A stretch of DNA of 12,237 bases from Anaerolineales bacterium (GTDB lineage: Bacteria > Chloroflexota > Anaerolineae > Anaerolineales > Anaerolineaceae). Shown piece by piece: positions 1-12,237 of the stretch. The notes under the pieces were generated by a model that ran no database searches, was not told where the DNA came from, and worked only from the letters and a program-made list of their open reading frames with translations. How positions within the stretch are numbered: the first letter of the stretch is position 1; the number at the start of each line of letters is the position of its first letter. The stretch covers positions 1 to 12,237 of the forward strand of contig JAGVAB010000151.1 in the NCBI GenBank assembly GCA_020060485.1, written 5' to 3'. The position numbers were made by a program, and so were the translations under genes.

Positions 1-137
1 CACCCCACCCCTCGAACTCCCCTCCCCGCGAGGTGCTTGACGTTGTGATCTTCATTCTTTTGCGGGAAGGGGAGCTTTTTGTACTGTGTTGAGCAGCTTC
101 GCTGCTCAACACAGTACGGGTTTTCCCTCCCCCGGCC
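1..137 (+). repeat. Dispersed hairpin-rich repeat, copy 1 (partial)
   Basis: This stretch matches the middle of the repeats at 10245-10611 and 11968-12237. It contains the CACCCCACCCCTCGAA block, a 13-bp stem CTCCCCTCCCCGC (17-29) against GCGGGAAGGGGAG (62-74), the run CTTTTTGT (75-82), a perfect palindrome (81-117) and the C-rich CCCTCCCCCGGCC. The upstream part lies outside the window. After about 137 the sequence departs from copy 2, so the right end is missing or diverged. The loop of the first hairpin differs from copies 2 and 3 while its stem is kept. The element is non-coding by all appearances. Confidence 0.85.
81..117. repeat. Perfect 17-bp hairpin in repeat copy 1
   Basis: GTACTGTGTTGAGCAGC (81-97) is followed by a TTC loop and its exact reverse complement (101-117). 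The outer 13 bp (GTACTGTGTTGAG) are identical to the hairpin in copy 2 at 10414-10456, but the inner four bases of each arm differ and still pair. The hairpin lies directly after a T-run in the repeat. Confidence 0.9.
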
Positions 138-5090: not shown

Positions 5091-5119
5091 TTGACAAATT
5101 CGCATAAGTGTGTTAAAGT
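5091..5119 (+). promoter_or_regulatory. Strong extended -10 promoter of the cold-shock gene
   Basis: A consensus TTGACA (5091-5096) is followed after 17 bp by TAAAGT (5114-5119). The -10 box is preceded directly by TGT, an extended -10 element. Transcription would begin near 5126, leaving a ~100-nt leader. Confidence 0.7.
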
Positions 5120-5125
5120 AAGTGT

Positions 5126-5226
5126 CCCGTTAGCAGTTGTGTTCTGTAAAAGCAGTACCGTTAGTGCACTGATCTGGAACCTCTAGCTTAACGAGTGAAT
5201 CATTAAAGAAGGAGGTAATACAGATC
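5126..5226 (+). promoter_or_regulatory. Long 5' leader of the cold-shock mRNA
   Basis: About 100 nt separate the predicted transcript start from the ATG. Long leaders are typical of csp genes, where folding changes with temperature. The leader holds two direct CCGTTAG repeats (5127-5133 and 5158-5164) and a later CTTAACG that could pair with CGTTAG, and ends in a strong GGAGGT (5211-5216) ten bases before the start. I did not recognise an E. coli-type cold-box sequence. The spacer before the promoter (about 4958-5090) shows nothing I can name. Confidence 0.4.
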
Positions 5227-5439
5227 ATGTCAGAACGTGAAACCGGAACAGTCAAATGGTTTAACGGCACAAAAGGCTTTGGCTTCATCGAACGTGAGGC
5301 CGGCGAGGACGTCTTCGTGCACTACAGTGCAATCTCAGGCGATGGCTTTCGCAATCTTGCTGAGGGACAGCGCGTGGAATTCACCGTTGTTCAGGGCCAA
5401 AAAGGCCCCCAGGCACAAGACGTAGTTCCTATGAACTAA
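5227..5439 (+). CDS. Cold-shock domain protein (CspA family)
   Basis: A 70-residue single cold-shock domain, the usual length for the family. The N-terminal [15 protein letters not shown] contains the first strand and the RNP1 motif [15 protein letters not shown] carries RNP2 (VFVHY). The end, GPQAQDVVP, is the family's last strand. These five-stranded barrels bind single-stranded RNA and DNA and act as RNA chaperones in the cytoplasm. The gene is monocistronic: its own strong promoter and ~100-nt leader lie upstream, and a near-perfect intrinsic terminator starts 19 bp after the stop. Cold induction is inferred from family and leader, not shown. Confidence 0.96.
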
Positions 5440-5457
5440 GCTTTGTTTGCCAAACAG

Positions 5458-5488
5458 AGTGCGGCGCTAAAAAGCGCCGCACTTTTTT
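5458..5488 (+). terminator. Intrinsic terminator of the cold-shock gene
   Basis: AGTGCGGCGCT (5458-5468) pairs perfectly with AGCGCCGCACT (5473-5483) around an AAAA loop, and six T residues follow the stem. It is a textbook rho-independent terminator for the plus strand. Confidence 0.95.
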
Positions 5489-8774: not shown

Positions 8775-8812
8775 AAACTTCCGCGGGTGTCTTCTCGAAC
8801 CCGCGGAAGTTT
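8775..8812. terminator. Bidirectional intrinsic terminator
   Basis: AAACTTCCGCGGGT (8775-8788) and ACCCGCGGAAGTTT (8799-8812) are perfect 14-bp arms around a 10-nt loop. T-rich sequence follows on the plus strand (TTTAATTTT), and the A-run before the left arm gives T6 on the minus strand. It separates the convergent transglutaminase-like and flavodoxin genes. Confidence 0.9.
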
Positions 8813-9546: not shown

Positions 9547-10161
9547 TTATTTTGTTTTTTTGAAGCTCTCGATTTGCGCCCGCAGCACCTGCAGTGCGAC
9601 TTCGTCAAATTCTTCCTGGCAATTGCGCATCAGGGTCATGCGCAGCATGGCGATGCCATGGGTCATGAACCAGGCCTGCCAACGCAGCGATTCGGGAGTC
9701 GTGCCCGGCGGCAGTTCCAGCTCGCCATTTTCAACACCTTGACGGACCAGATTGCTCAAACCGGCGAAATTCGGATCGGCTGTGATCTCGGACAGACTTT
9801 GCTGCGGCCCGCTTTCGCTGACATTGAACATCAGGTGATACAGTTCCGGGTATTGGCGGGCGAATTGCAGGTACACACTGCCGGACGTGTACAACTGCTC
9901 AATGATCGGCGCCCGGGGGTCCAATGCTGTGCGCTGCATCTCTGCGGATCGCTGCCAGCCCTCTTCTCGCAAAGCATCCAGGATCTTTTCTTTACTGTCA
10001 AAGTACTTGTATAAAGCGGCCGGCGAGTAATCCACTTTCTCGGCCAGCGAGCGCATCGACAGCGCGTCAATGCCGTCATTTAGCAGGATCGCACGGGCGG
10101 CATTGATGATTGCCTGGCGGGTGCGGGCATGTCGCTTTTCACTTGGGGTTCGTGGTGACAT
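9547..10161 (-). CDS. TetR/AcrR family transcriptional regulator (WHG-type C-terminal domain)
   Basis: A 204-residue repressor. Residues 14-60 hold the DNA-binding helix-turn-helix: RQAIINAARAILLNDGIDAL, then MRSLAEKVDYSPAALYKYFDSKEKIL, the typical TetR 'S..ALYKYF..KE.L' recognition helix. The C-terminal ligand and dimer domain contains LYHLMFN (107-113) and WFMTHGIAML (164-173), the W-x3-HG signature of the WHG class. The inducer is unknown. GGAGG sits just before the ATG. Its promoter at 10222-10194 overlaps two imperfect palindromes, so it most likely represses itself and the downstream flavodoxin gene. A second, divergent control target seems to have been lost where a repeat has entered (see 10193-10244). 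Confidence 0.92.
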   Translation of the reverse strand: MSPRTPSEKRHARTRQAIINAARAILLNDGIDALSMRSLAEKVDYSPAALYKYFDSKEKILDALREEGWQRSAEMQRTALDPRAPIIEQLYTSGSVYLQFARQYPELYHLMFNVSESGPQQSLSEITADPNFAGLSNLVRQGVENGELELPPGTTPESLRWQAWFMTHGIAMLRMTLMRNCQEEFDEVALQVLRAQIESFKKTK

Positions 10162-10222: not shown

Positions 10223-10349
10223 GGGAGAACACATGAAAATCCATGGCTTTCTCAAAGTTATTTTTCCATTTGTTTCTTTTATTGATGGCACGAGGCTGGA
10301 CGAAAGACGGTCTGTGCATCACCGGGGTTTATTCACCCCACCCCTCGAA

Positions 10350-10415
10350 CTCCCCTCCCCGCTGCTTGCGTGACGAATCCCAATTCCTTCTTCTGCGGGA
10401 AGGGGAGCTTTTTGT
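10350..10415 (+). terminator. GC-rich stem plus T-run in the repeat (terminator-like)
   Basis: CTCCCCTCCCCGC (10350-10362) pairs with GCGGGAAGGGGAG (10395-10407), 12 of 13, and CTTTTTGT follows. The same stem and T-run occur at 17-82 and 12074-12138; in copy 1 the loop differs. The 32-nt loop is long for an intrinsic terminator, so function is uncertain. Confidence 0.4.
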
Positions 10416-10456
10416 ACTGTGTTGAGAAACGGCGAAGCCGTTTCTCAACACAGTAC
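10414..10456. repeat. Perfect 20-bp hairpin in repeat copy 2
   Basis: GTACTGTGTTGAGAAACGGC (10414-10433) has a GAA loop and an exact reverse-complement arm (10437-10456). The outer 13 bp equal the hairpin at 81-117; the inner seven (AAACGGC) replace that copy's CAGC yet remain fully paired. Confidence 0.9.
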
Positions 10457-10463
10457 GTTTCTT

Positions 10464-10520
10464 TTCCCCCCCCGGCCTATAAAGCCTAATTTACAAATCC
10501 AATCCGTGCCGGGGGAGGAA
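10464..10520. repeat. C-rich/G-rich hairpin in repeat copy 2
   Basis: TTCCCCCCCCGGC (10464-10476) can pair with GCCGGGGGAGGAA (10508-10520) with one mismatch, around a 31-nt AT-rich loop. Copy 1 keeps only a left-arm-like TCCCTCCCCCGGC; copy 3 lacks the whole structure. Confidence 0.65.
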
Positions 10521-10667
10521 TCCATTATCATCTGGATTTTGCATCTAGTTTGGTCTGGATGACCTTGACCGTTTTGGAAAATCGTAAATGTCAAGCTTTC
10601 TTGAGAATGCCATGCATGGAAATCCACGCCAAATTGATCCTTCCGGATTTTTTGTTTGGTCCCCTGA

Positions 10668-10848
10668 TGCAATTCCCTGCCTTTCCCCTTTATCATCAGA
10701 CTGTTGGCCAATCGCTTGCGCGGCCGTGGATATGAATGGGTGCATCTCTCGTTGACTTCGGCCGACAATCCCTTTACCCAACCTTGCCACCGGCCTGGGT
10801 GGAACAATCTACAATCGTTATCAGGTGTACCGTCTGGAGCTTTCCTGA
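10668..10848 (+). pseudogene. GNAT acetyltransferase C-terminal relic with frameshift
   Basis: The plus-strand reading IIRLLANRLRGRGYEWVHLS, then LTSADNPFT (to 10778), looks like the end of a GNAT acetyltransferase. Shifting one base at the CCC run (10777-10779) continues as NLATGLGGTIYNRYQVYRLE and LS, stopping at TGA 10846-10848. Together they match the usual 'HLSLTSEDNP..LATRLGG.IYKRYQVYRLEL' C-terminus of GNAT proteins in this kind of genome. A TGA at 10665 blocks the frame upstream. A weaker possible earlier piece, IDPSGFFVW, appears in another frame at 10633-10659. No intact start is found. It lies next to the repeat copy at 10245-10611 and on the opposite strand to the intact GNAT gene. 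Confidence 0.65.
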
Positions 10849-10926
10849 CGATATCAGCAAGAAAAACAACATCCTCCTGCAGCCAATTGGCCCGGGAGGA
10901 TGTCCGATCATAAGACAGCACCCATT

Positions 10927-11820
10927 TTAGAAAAATTTCAGCCAACAGCGGCTGTCAAAGATCTTTCTAAAACCCATTGCCTGATAGAACAATTGCTCCG
11001 AGCCGACAAAGGCTTCCAGCGCGCCCAGGGCAGCACAACGGCGCAGGCCCTCTATCACGGCTGCCTTGCCCAGGCCCATGCGGCGGTACTGTGGGTCTGT
11101 GGCAACTGGTTCGACATAGGCGATGCGGTTCTCAGGCTGATACCAAAGGCCGGCAAAGGCGGCATACTGGCCGTTGGGCGCCACGGCCACCATGGTCAGC
11201 TCTTTGCGGAAGTTGGGAGTGGACTGCATCTTGATTCGCCCGGAAAGGTCATCTGGCGGTTCACCATCATGATTGAAACCGCGCCACAGGACACGGTTGA
11301 TCTTTACCAGGTCATTCTCGTCAGCCAGGCTTTGCACCCGATAACCCGTGGGCAGCTCCGGGACGGGCAGATCTTCCAGCAGGGGCAGCCAGGACATGGG
11401 ACGATTGTAATCTTCATCCAGAGCGTAACCGCGTTCCTGGAGTATGGCTTCCAGGGCAGAATCAGCATCATGAACATAGATGCGGGCAAAATTTTGCCCC
11501 TCTTCCGAAATCCCAAGCAGATGGTGTTCGGCATAGTCCAAGAGCTCCGGTTTGAGGTTTTGAAACGCAGGGTGGAACTCGAAAAAGACTTCGCCGGGTG
11601 TGCTCTCATAGTGGACCACAGCCACAATTTCACCATCACATTCCCAAATCCCTATTCTGTCCAGCGCAGTTACATCCAGATTGGGATGGCTATGCATATA
11701 TTCCCAGATGGGTTGCAGCCAATTGCCGTCCTTGTTCCCGCGCCGGAAATGAACCGTCAGAAAACGGCTCACATTTACAAAATCAGCAGGGTCGACATAA
11801 GTACGAAATTTGATCGACAT
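10927..11820 (-). CDS. GNAT family N-acetyltransferase (tandem GNAT fold)
   Basis: A 297-residue protein made of two GNAT-like halves. The C-terminal half carries the acetyl-CoA signature: YVEPVATDPQYRRMGLGKAA (235-254) includes the R-x-x-G-x-G/A pyrophosphate loop (R246, G249, G251), then ALEAFVGSEQLFYQAMGF, the usual final strand and helix. The N-terminal half (residues 1-150; GIWECDGEIVAVVHY, EFFEF-like strands, FARIYVHDADSALEAILQERGY) has the fold's strand order but a degenerate loop. Such double-GNAT proteins resemble mycothiol-synthase-like enzymes in layout; the acceptor here is unknown. AAAGGAG precedes the ATG at good spacing, and a promoter lies at 11894-11865. The gene lies between two direct copies of the dispersed repeat. 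Confidence 0.87.
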   Translation of the reverse strand: MSIKFRTYVDPADFVNVSRFLTVHFRRGNKDGNWLQPIWEYMHSHPNLDVTALDRIGIWECDGEIVAVVHYESTPGEVFFEFHPAFQNLKPELLDYAEHHLLGISEEGQNFARIYVHDADSALEAILQERGYALDEDYNRPMSWLPLLEDLPVPELPTGYRVQSLADENDLVKINRVLWRGFNHDGEPPDDLSGRIKMQSTPNFRKELTMVAVAPNGQYAAFAGLWYQPENRIAYVEPVATDPQYRRMGLGKAAVIEGLRRCAALGALEAFVGSEQLFYQAMGFRKIFDSRCWLKFF

Positions 11821-11864
11821 CTGATGTCTCCTTTACAGAAGGTTGATTTCGCAGAAACACATTT

Positions 11865-11894
11865 AATATAACTGACATTGTATACGATGTGCAA
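11865..11894 (-). promoter_or_regulatory. Promoter of the GNAT gene
   Basis: On the minus strand TTGCAC (11894-11889) and TATATT (11870-11865) lie 18 bp apart, about 45 bp before the ATG. Both hexamers are one or two changes from consensus. Confidence 0.6.
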
Positions 11895-11899
11895 TTTTG

Positions 11900-11915
11900 A
11901 AATTTCATGAAATTT
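11900..11915. promoter_or_regulatory. Perfect 16-bp palindrome upstream of the GNAT promoter
   Basis: AAATTTCATGAAATTT is its own reverse complement, and an outer pair CAATTT (11892-11897) / AAATTG (11922-11927) flanks it. It sits just upstream of the -35 box, a position suited to an activator or repressor dimer. The AT-rich context makes chance a possibility. Confidence 0.45.
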
Positions 11916-11967
11916 GATTGTAAATTGAAATGACGTATAGTAACAGGGATCGCATGCTGAGAAGCAG

Positions 11968-12237
11968 GGCTTTCTCAAAGTTGATTTTCCATTTGTTTCT
12001 TTTATTGATGGCACGAGGCCGGACGAAAGACGGTCTGTGCATCACCAGGGTTTATTCACCCCACCCCTCGAATTCCCCTCCCCGCTGCTTGCGTGACGAA
12101 TCCCAATTCCTTCTTCTGCGGGAAGGGGAGCTTTTTGTGGCAGAGGGCAGCCCATTATCATCAGCATTTTGCATCTACTTTGGTCTGGATGACCTTGACC
12201 GTTTTGGAAAATCGTAAATGTCAAGCTTTTTTGAGAA
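11968..12237 (+). mobile_element. MITE-like repeat, copy 3 (right end outside window, central module missing)
   Basis: It starts with the same GGCTTTCTCAAAG as copy 2 and follows it over 171 bp with about five differences. GGCAGAGGGCAG (12139-12150) then stands where copy 2 has the 105-bp double-hairpin module, and the 87-bp right part resumes to the window edge with about five differences. The first GC-rich stem and T-run (12074-12138) are kept. The last few bases of the right inverted end lie beyond the window. Same orientation as copies 1 and 2. Confidence 0.75.

What the first reader, a model, noticed from the sequence alone, without database searches (positions are those of the whole stretch)
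81..117. Hairpins in copies 1 and 2 share outer arms but have swapped, still-pairing inner stems
Both hairpins begin and end with the same 13 bases (GTACTGTGTTGAG and its complement). The inner arm is CAGC with a TTC loop in copy 1 and AAACGGC with a GAA loop in copy 2 (10414-10456). Each is perfectly paired (17 and 20 bp). Replacing both sides of a stem while keeping pairing implies selection on structure, inversion or template copying of the hairpin, or a family of inserted palindromes with shared ends.
Basis: seen in the sequence. Interest (0 to 1): 0.7.

Follow-up and report, generated by a model that had tools for sequence, protein, structure and literature searches.

The report
Mobile DNA hairpins with swapped tips
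Two perfect DNA hairpins in an uncultured Anaerolineaceae-like bacterium belong to a repeat that, at one site, is a small non-coding jumping element, and comparable elements in other genomes show hairpin interiors that flip over or are exchanged as whole units, so paired changes need not mean selection on RNA shape.

Summary
In detail: 81-117 (17 bp, loop TTC) and 10414-10456 (20 bp, loop GAA) are perfect hairpins with identical 13-nt outer arms. Their cores are exact reverse complements (GCTTCGC/GCGAAGC). They are not separate inserts: they sit at the same place in a longer shared repeat, and upstream divergence is confined to hairpin interiors. Copy 2 lies in a 371-bp MITE (10243-10613) whose ends match an autonomous ISAs1-family element and which has a 9/10-bp target duplication. 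Copy 3 (11965 to window end) is the same element without the hairpin. Copy 1 lacks the right end. In G027 hairpin interiors come in discrete types, in both orientations, unlinked from flank ancestry. Tips form more reverse-complement pairs than chance in G241 (P 0.0004), but not significantly in G036 (P 0.08). Best reading: template switching or copy-to-copy exchange at the hairpins rather than selection on an RNA. Caveats: only two hairpins in the window, analogues with different arms, draft assemblies, mechanism inferred.

The parts
81..117 (+). Hairpin of copy 1: arms GTACTGTGTTGAG, inner stem CAGC, loop TTC (17 bp)
10414..10456 (+). Hairpin of copy 2: same arms, inner stem AAACGGC, loop GAA (20 bp)
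17..74 (+). First hairpin of copy 1: CTCCCCTCCCCGC / GCGGGAAGGGGAG (12 of 13 pairs), followed by CTTTTTGT; arms identical to copy 2, loop 17 of 32 identical
1..74 (-). Triplex-like motif of copy 1 on the - strand: pyrimidine tract, 36-nt loop, GGGGAGGGG(AG), 5-nt loop, GGGGTGGGG
10334..10407 (-). Triplex-like motif of copy 2
12057..12130 (-). Triplex-like motif of copy 3
10243..10613 (+). MITE, copy 2: ends ATGGCTTTCTCAA... and ...CTTTCTTGAGAATGCCAT, 371 bp
   Evidence: (length, ends). Compared by eye with the autonomous element of L022: right end 17 of 18 bases, left end 12 of the first 13, diverging after that
10233..10242 (+). Left target-site copy ATGAAAATCC (right copy ATGGAAATCC; 9 of 10)
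   Evidence: 1 of 20000 random pairs (uniform bases) reached 9
10616..10625 (+). Right target-site copy ATGGAAATCC
11965..12237 (+). Copy 3 of the element: 97% (174 nt) and 95% (86 nt) identical to copy 2 in two blocks, hairpin missing, right end cut by the window end
1..137 (+). Copy 1 of the shared module, cut by the window start; no right terminal inverted repeat found at 118-300 with up to 6 substitutions in 18

Best explanation
Shown: both hairpins are homologous parts of one interspersed repeat of an Anaerolineaceae-like genome. Copy 2 is a complete MITE with the ends of an ISAs1-family insertion sequence and a 10-bp target duplication with one mismatch. Copy 3 is a sister without the hairpin, and copy 1 is a third copy of the inner module. 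The repeat joins a G-rich triplex-like motif to a perfect palindrome. Inferred: the element is moved in trans by an ISAs1-family transposase. Also inferred: the palindrome and the triplex-like motif hinder replication, and hairpin interiors then change as units, by template switching (loop inversion, copying of one arm onto the other) or by exchange between copies, which keeps both sides paired without selection on an RNA.
For: Upstream divergence between copies 1 and 2 is confined to hairpin interiors: stems 52/52, flanks 22/22, loop of first hairpin 17/32 identical. Loop cores are exact reverse complements. MITE ends and target duplication; the L022 protein matches NF033564 (ISAs1 transposase) at 2.5e-61. 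Analogues. G027: one MITE family holds a 30-nt interior and its exact reverse complement, and a 7-nt interior TCGGTGA and its reverse complement TCACCGA; of 28 rows, A 10, A inverted 2 (one cut by a contig end), B 10, B inverted 3, untyped 3. Interior type is unlinked from flank ancestry: 10 changes on a 24-row tree, shuffled mean 10.7, as low in 84 of 200. The two closest flank pairs (146/147 and 118/119 columns) carry different interiors. G241: 4 reverse-complement pairs among 17 distinct tips of 25 copies, 2 of 5000 simulations as many. Template switching is described as giving multiple paired changes and inverted loops (PMC8794818, passages).
Against: Only two hairpins exist in the window, and a 3-nt loop equals a given reverse complement by chance once in 64. 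A loop flip does not by itself explain the change from CAGC to AAACGGC. In G036, 2 reverse-complement pairs among 6 triloops gave P 0.083. Downstream of the hairpin copies 1 and 2 also differ (76% over 34 nt), so change is not wholly confined to interiors. The flank tree of G027 is weak (2 of 21 inner branches starred). The comparison genomes are in many contigs, and three G027 copies hold N runs; repeat chimeras could fake the unlinking of interior and flank, though hardly the reverse-complement interiors. Arms in the analogues are unrelated to the window's arms. PMC8794818 reports that paired changes together with loop inversion are very rare in rRNA.
Confidence: 0.6

Rival explanations
1. 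Selection on an RNA hairpin (an intrinsic terminator or mRNA-end structure) keeps pairing while the sequence drifts.
For: Stems are perfect; each hairpin is followed by a T-containing stretch on the + strand (GTTTCTTTT, GGGTTTT) and the first hairpin by CTTTTTGT.
Against: Outer arms are identical, not covarying. Just upstream of copy 2 I found no + strand ORF with a recognised family: the TetR-like gene 9547-10161 and the GNAT-like gene 10927-11820 are both on the - strand (16 of the 71 listed ORFs were scanned). Copy 3 lacks the hairpin. No Rfam family reached its gathering score. The terminator scan found 17 sites against 15.1 in shuffles, although these two hairpins head its list. In G241 the inner pair is T-G in 3 and C-A in 2 of 25, too few to show an RNA-like strand bias (my count).
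Confidence: 0.15
2. A dedicated enzyme (transposase, invertase or hairpin nuclease) flips or swaps hairpin interiors.
For: Interiors flip exactly between arms in G027, including a 30-nt interior between 9-nt arms; interior and flank are unlinked.
Against: Arms differ between genomes and template switching needs no dedicated enzyme. I did not search for candidate enzymes, so this is not excluded.
Confidence: 0.12
3. Independent insertions of palindromes that share ends.
For: Copy 3 lacks the hairpin, as an empty site would.
Against: Copies 1 and 2 share sequence on both sides of the hairpin. Copy 3 is shorter than copy 2 by 93 nt (difference of the two spacings), including non-palindromic sequence, which fits a deletion better.
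Confidence: 0.05

Closest known systems
MITEs of the ISAs1 insertion-sequence family
   Same: Short element with ISAs1-type inverted ends and 10-bp target duplication; an autonomous element with the same ends in L022
   Different: Carries a triplex-like motif and a long perfect palindrome; the autonomous element is in another genome, and none could be sought in the source genome
REP palindromes (GTAG and CGTC families, PMC3733652, passages seen)
   Same: Palindromic repeats whose families contain alternative complementary stems and variable loops; GTAG repeats are reported there from Chloroflexi among others
   Different: Stems of 17-20 bp, no GTAG or CGTC tag, and inside a MITE at copy 2
Intrastrand triplex motifs, TMECO/PIT (PMC4666352; abstract, passages and first part of the discussion seen)
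   Same: Order pyrimidine tract, purine tract, second purine tract; G/C-rich; loops less conserved than stems
   Different: 36-nt first loop here; here inside a MITE at copy 2, whereas that paper reports never finding mobility genes around its E. coli motif sites
Template-switch changes in RNA hairpins (PMC8794818, passages seen)
   Same: Paired multi-base changes and inverted loops
   Different: Described there in rRNA genes; here in non-coding mobile repeats
Small hairpin-loop inversions of chloroplast DNA (listing only; otherwise recalled)
   Same: Loop of a stem-loop flips in place
   Different: Organelle loci, not dispersed repeats

Membership tests
ISAs1-type MITE | Terminal inverted repeats shared with an autonomous element | tested here: met
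   Right end 17/18, left end 12 of first 13 bases identical to L022 ends (read); L022 protein is ISAs1
ISAs1-type MITE | Target duplication of about 10 bp | tested here: met
   Copy 2: 9/10. Copies 1 and 3 are cut by the window ends and cannot be tested
ISAs1-type MITE | No transposase gene inside | tested here: met
   By length: 371 bp against 1310 bp for the autonomous element. The small ORFs inside it were not scanned; none of the 16 window ORFs scanned was a transposase
ISAs1-type MITE | Autonomous partner in the same genome | not testable with these tools
   No genome is held for the window
REP (GTAG/CGTC) | GTAG or CGTC tag at one end of the palindrome | tested here: not met
   The palindrome begins and ends with GTAC
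Intrastrand triplex motif (TM/PIT) | Y-R-R tracts able to form a purine triplex | tested here: inconclusive
   9-nt core fits (G.GC and T.AT triads) in 3 of 3 copies, Y/R 10, 10 and 9 of 11 pairs, but the first loop is 36 nt; no biophysics
Intrinsic terminator | Hairpin plus T run downstream of a gene on the same strand | tested here: inconclusive
   Hairpin and T-containing stretch present; no recognised + strand gene just upstream of copy 2; upstream of copy 1 lies outside the window
Template-switch product | Loop inverted exactly between paired arms | tested here: met
   Window cores reverse complementary, though only 7 nt; G027 30-nt interior
Template-switch product | Event seen between parent and offspring or sister strains | not testable with these tools

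The most novel reading that the evidence does not exclude
Anaerolineae carry MITE-borne triplex-plus-palindrome modules whose hairpin interiors behave as exchangeable, invertible cassettes: a set of interiors circulates among elements through 9-13 nt arms faster than the flanks diverge, so the hairpins act as hotspots of small-scale rearrangement spread by transposition.
Probability: 0.3. Interest if true: 0.6.

Novelty: new variant of a known kind. Interest (0 to 1): 0.42.

Why it matters
Paired changes in stems are often read as proof of selection on RNA structure. Here is a natural set, in non-coding mobile repeats, where perfect pairing persists although interiors are flipped or replaced as blocks, so such covariation could arise from the mutation process alone. 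It also offers triplex-like motifs, reported in E. coli without nearby mobility genes, a possible route of spread.

Tried and rejected
Exact arm pair: none in genome contigs, viral contigs or 147 family genomes; a second module pattern gave none in viral contigs. Phages searched with 1-280 only: no match. Plasmids with copy 2: no match; with 1-140 at E up to 1: only 27-nt C-rich stretches in 19 records. Rfam: four matches, all below gathering score; the two miRNA-family matches on the hairpins are taken as chance. The pattern GCGGGAAGGGGAGCTTTTTGT with up to 3 mismatches matched 14 of 147 genomes (18 matches), no better than its reversed control (14 genomes, 15 matches); only G027 had several (5). 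G027 proved to carry a different MITE with similar G-rich arms, so it is an analogue, not a shown homologue. G042 holds one copy of an element with the window's right end and an unrelated 15-pair palindrome: no test possible. The G075 match was only read. Selection on RNA and independent insertion were considered and scored low.

Rows dropped. G027: 33 matches, 30 with loci; L132 and L138 came out as repeats of other rows and were dropped, leaving 28; 25 typed; L140 dropped from the tree for lack of columns, leaving 24. G036: one 4-nt tip (L165) left out of the simulation. G241: 40 of 167 candidates scored, 30 matches. The 25 copies were selected for exact outer arms. In the 30 less selected copies the six-pair arms are perfect in 26, wobble in 3, mismatched in 1. 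Target duplications, 10/10: G027 in 7 of 18 examined (lower in 5, not measurable in 6), G036 in 6 of 12 (9/10 in 1 more), G007 in 4 of 6, G241 in 3 of 3.

Full report
Observation. The two hairpins are as described: 81-117 with 17 pairs and 10414-10456 with 20, outer arms of 13 nt identical, inner stems CAGC and AAACGGC, loops TTC and GAA. The longest perfect stem in 20 mononucleotide shuffles of the window was 10 bp.

Context. The hairpins lie at the same place in a longer repeat. Positions 1-93 and 10334-10426 align without gaps. Over these and the 3' outer arm, the arms of both hairpins are identical in 52 of 52 columns and the other flanks in 22 of 22, while the loop of the first hairpin is identical in 17 of 32. 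Upstream, then, all divergence is inside hairpins. Downstream the similarity is weaker (76% over 34 nt that include the 3' arm). A third copy (11965 to the window end) is 97% and 95% identical to copy 2 in two blocks but lacks the hairpin; it is 93 nt shorter between the blocks. Since copies 1 and 2 share the hairpin in shared surroundings, a deletion in copy 3 is simpler than two insertions (inference).

Identity of the element. The neighbouring kinase-like gene has its nearest named relatives in Anaerolineaceae and other Anaerolineae, the nearest genome at 60% identity. Copy 2 was searched in eight genomes that hold such relatives. In G007, 7 of 11 matches were to its right end. There the match is the end of a 157-160 bp element with inverted ends like ATGGCGTTCTCAAGAA and 10-bp target duplications (10/10 in 4 of 6 examined, 9 and 8 in the others). 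In G002 (the genome of L002, titled Ornatilinea sp.) the same ends bound a 1310-bp element with a 10/10 duplication, whose protein is an ISAs1-family transposase (NF033564, E 2.5e-61). Copy 2 of the window has such ends 371 bp apart and a 9/10 duplication (1 of 20000 random pairs did as well). I therefore call it a MITE of ISAs1 type. Copy 1 has no recognisable right end, and its left side lies outside the window. The window starts and ends inside this repeat, as a contig broken at repeats would (inference).

A second motif. On the minus strand each copy reads pyrimidine tract, 36-nt loop, GGGGAGGGG with two more bases, 5-nt loop, GGGGTGGGG. This is the order of the intrastrand triplex motifs of Holder et al. 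2015 (PMC4666352; abstract, passages and first part of the discussion seen). They tie such motifs in E. coli to local instability, found no evidence of stable triplexes in vivo, report no mobility genes nearby, and cite an earlier finding of no promoter or terminator activity. The long first loop makes membership uncertain.

Test on analogues. It was run on three analogues.

It has a MITE with ends CAGGGCAATCGCAAAGT and hairpin arms CCCTTCCCC/GGGGAAGGG. Of 28 rows, the interior is a 30-nt type A in 10, A reversed in 2 (one cut by a contig end), a 7-nt type B in 10, B reversed in 3, and untyped in 3. An A and a reversed-A interior are exact reverse complements over 30 nt. On a tree of 24 rows built from the flanks, interior type needs 10 changes against a mean of 10.7 for shuffled labels; the tree is weakly supported (2 of 21 inner branches starred). 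Among pairs with at least 100 shared columns, mean flank identity is 0.801 for 73 pairs of the same type and 0.796 for 145 pairs of different type, and the two most similar pairs (146/147 and 118/119 columns) carry different interiors. Target duplications were 10/10 in 7 of 18 examined.

(2) G036: the same arms, 12 copies, tips CGGGG 5, CCCCG 2, CGAGG 1, CCTCG 1, CCCGG 1, CACCG 1, CCCG 1. There are two reverse-complement pairs among six triloops, P 0.083, not significant. Target duplications were at least 9/10 in 7 of 12. Of 147 genomes searched with this arm pattern, 3 matched: G027, G036 and G026 with one copy.

(3) G241: a dispersed palindrome TTGCGAGGAGTGGCG...CGCCACGACG, also carried inside 2 of the 3 MITEs found there with ends like the window's. 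Such ends matched in 2 of 396 genomes of the class. Of 25 copies with exact arms there are 17 distinct tips and four reverse-complement pairs; 2 of 5000 simulations gave as many. The inner variable pair is C-G in 9, T-A in 10, T-G in 3 and other in 3 (2 of them C-A) of 25 (my count). In 30 copies not selected for exact arms, the arms are perfect in 26, wobble in 3, mismatched in 1.

Mechanism. Blocks that flip exactly between arms, and interiors unlinked from flanks, point to events that rewrite a whole hairpin interior at once. Template switching during replication is described as producing multiple paired changes and inverted loops (PMC8794818, passages), though the two together were very rare in rRNA. 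Exchange between copies could add interiors. In the window the flip accounts for TTC/GAA. The change CAGC to AAACGGC needs a further event, in which one arm gained new bases that were copied to the other, or an interior was acquired from another copy; this step is inferred.

Against my reading. Two hairpins are few. A 3-nt loop matches a reverse complement by chance once in 64. The analogues have different arms, so they show that the process exists in other Anaerolineae, not that it made these two hairpins. Draft assemblies can join repeats wrongly; that could produce unlinked interiors, but hardly reverse-complement interiors, since the 9-nt arms are shorter than usual assembly words (recalled). 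G036 alone is not significant.

Literature. Listings for ISAs1 with MITE (6 papers), Chloroflexi with miniature inverted-repeat (5), intrastrand triplex with transposable element (6), and zero papers for Anaerolineae with palindromic repeat and for loop inversion with palindrome showed, by title and start of abstract, no description of such elements in Anaerolineae; further listings are. Subscription journals are largely not held, so absence in print is not shown.

Noticed in passing
10243-12237: Two direct copies of the MITE flank a GNAT-like acetyltransferase gene (10927-11820, - strand), a layout from which a composite mobile unit could form.
   Followed up: no
5096-5487: Rfam cspA thermoregulator model matches at E 1e-10 (50.9 bits, below the gathering score of 78) over a cold-shock gene (5227-5439) with a terminator-like hairpin at 5458-5483.
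   Followed up: no
8775-8812: A 14-bp perfect hairpin with a 10-nt loop between the transglutaminase-like and flavodoxin-like genes.
   Followed up: no
L048-L077 (G241): A dispersed palindrome TGTCATTGCGAGGAGTGGCGC...GCGCCACGACGAAGCAATCTC with many different tips, two copies inside MITEs.
   Followed up: partly
L112-L141, L144-L165 (G027, G036): MITEs of about 170-196 bp whose inside reads CCCTTCCCC-tip-GGGGAAGGG-loop-GGGAAGGGG, the order of the E. coli triplex motif, between inverted ends with 10-bp target duplications in many copies.
   Followed up: partly
L044 1338-1523 (G042): One element with the window's right end and a G-rich hairpin followed by an unrelated 15-pair palindrome with one G-U, a layout like the window's.
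   Followed up: partly
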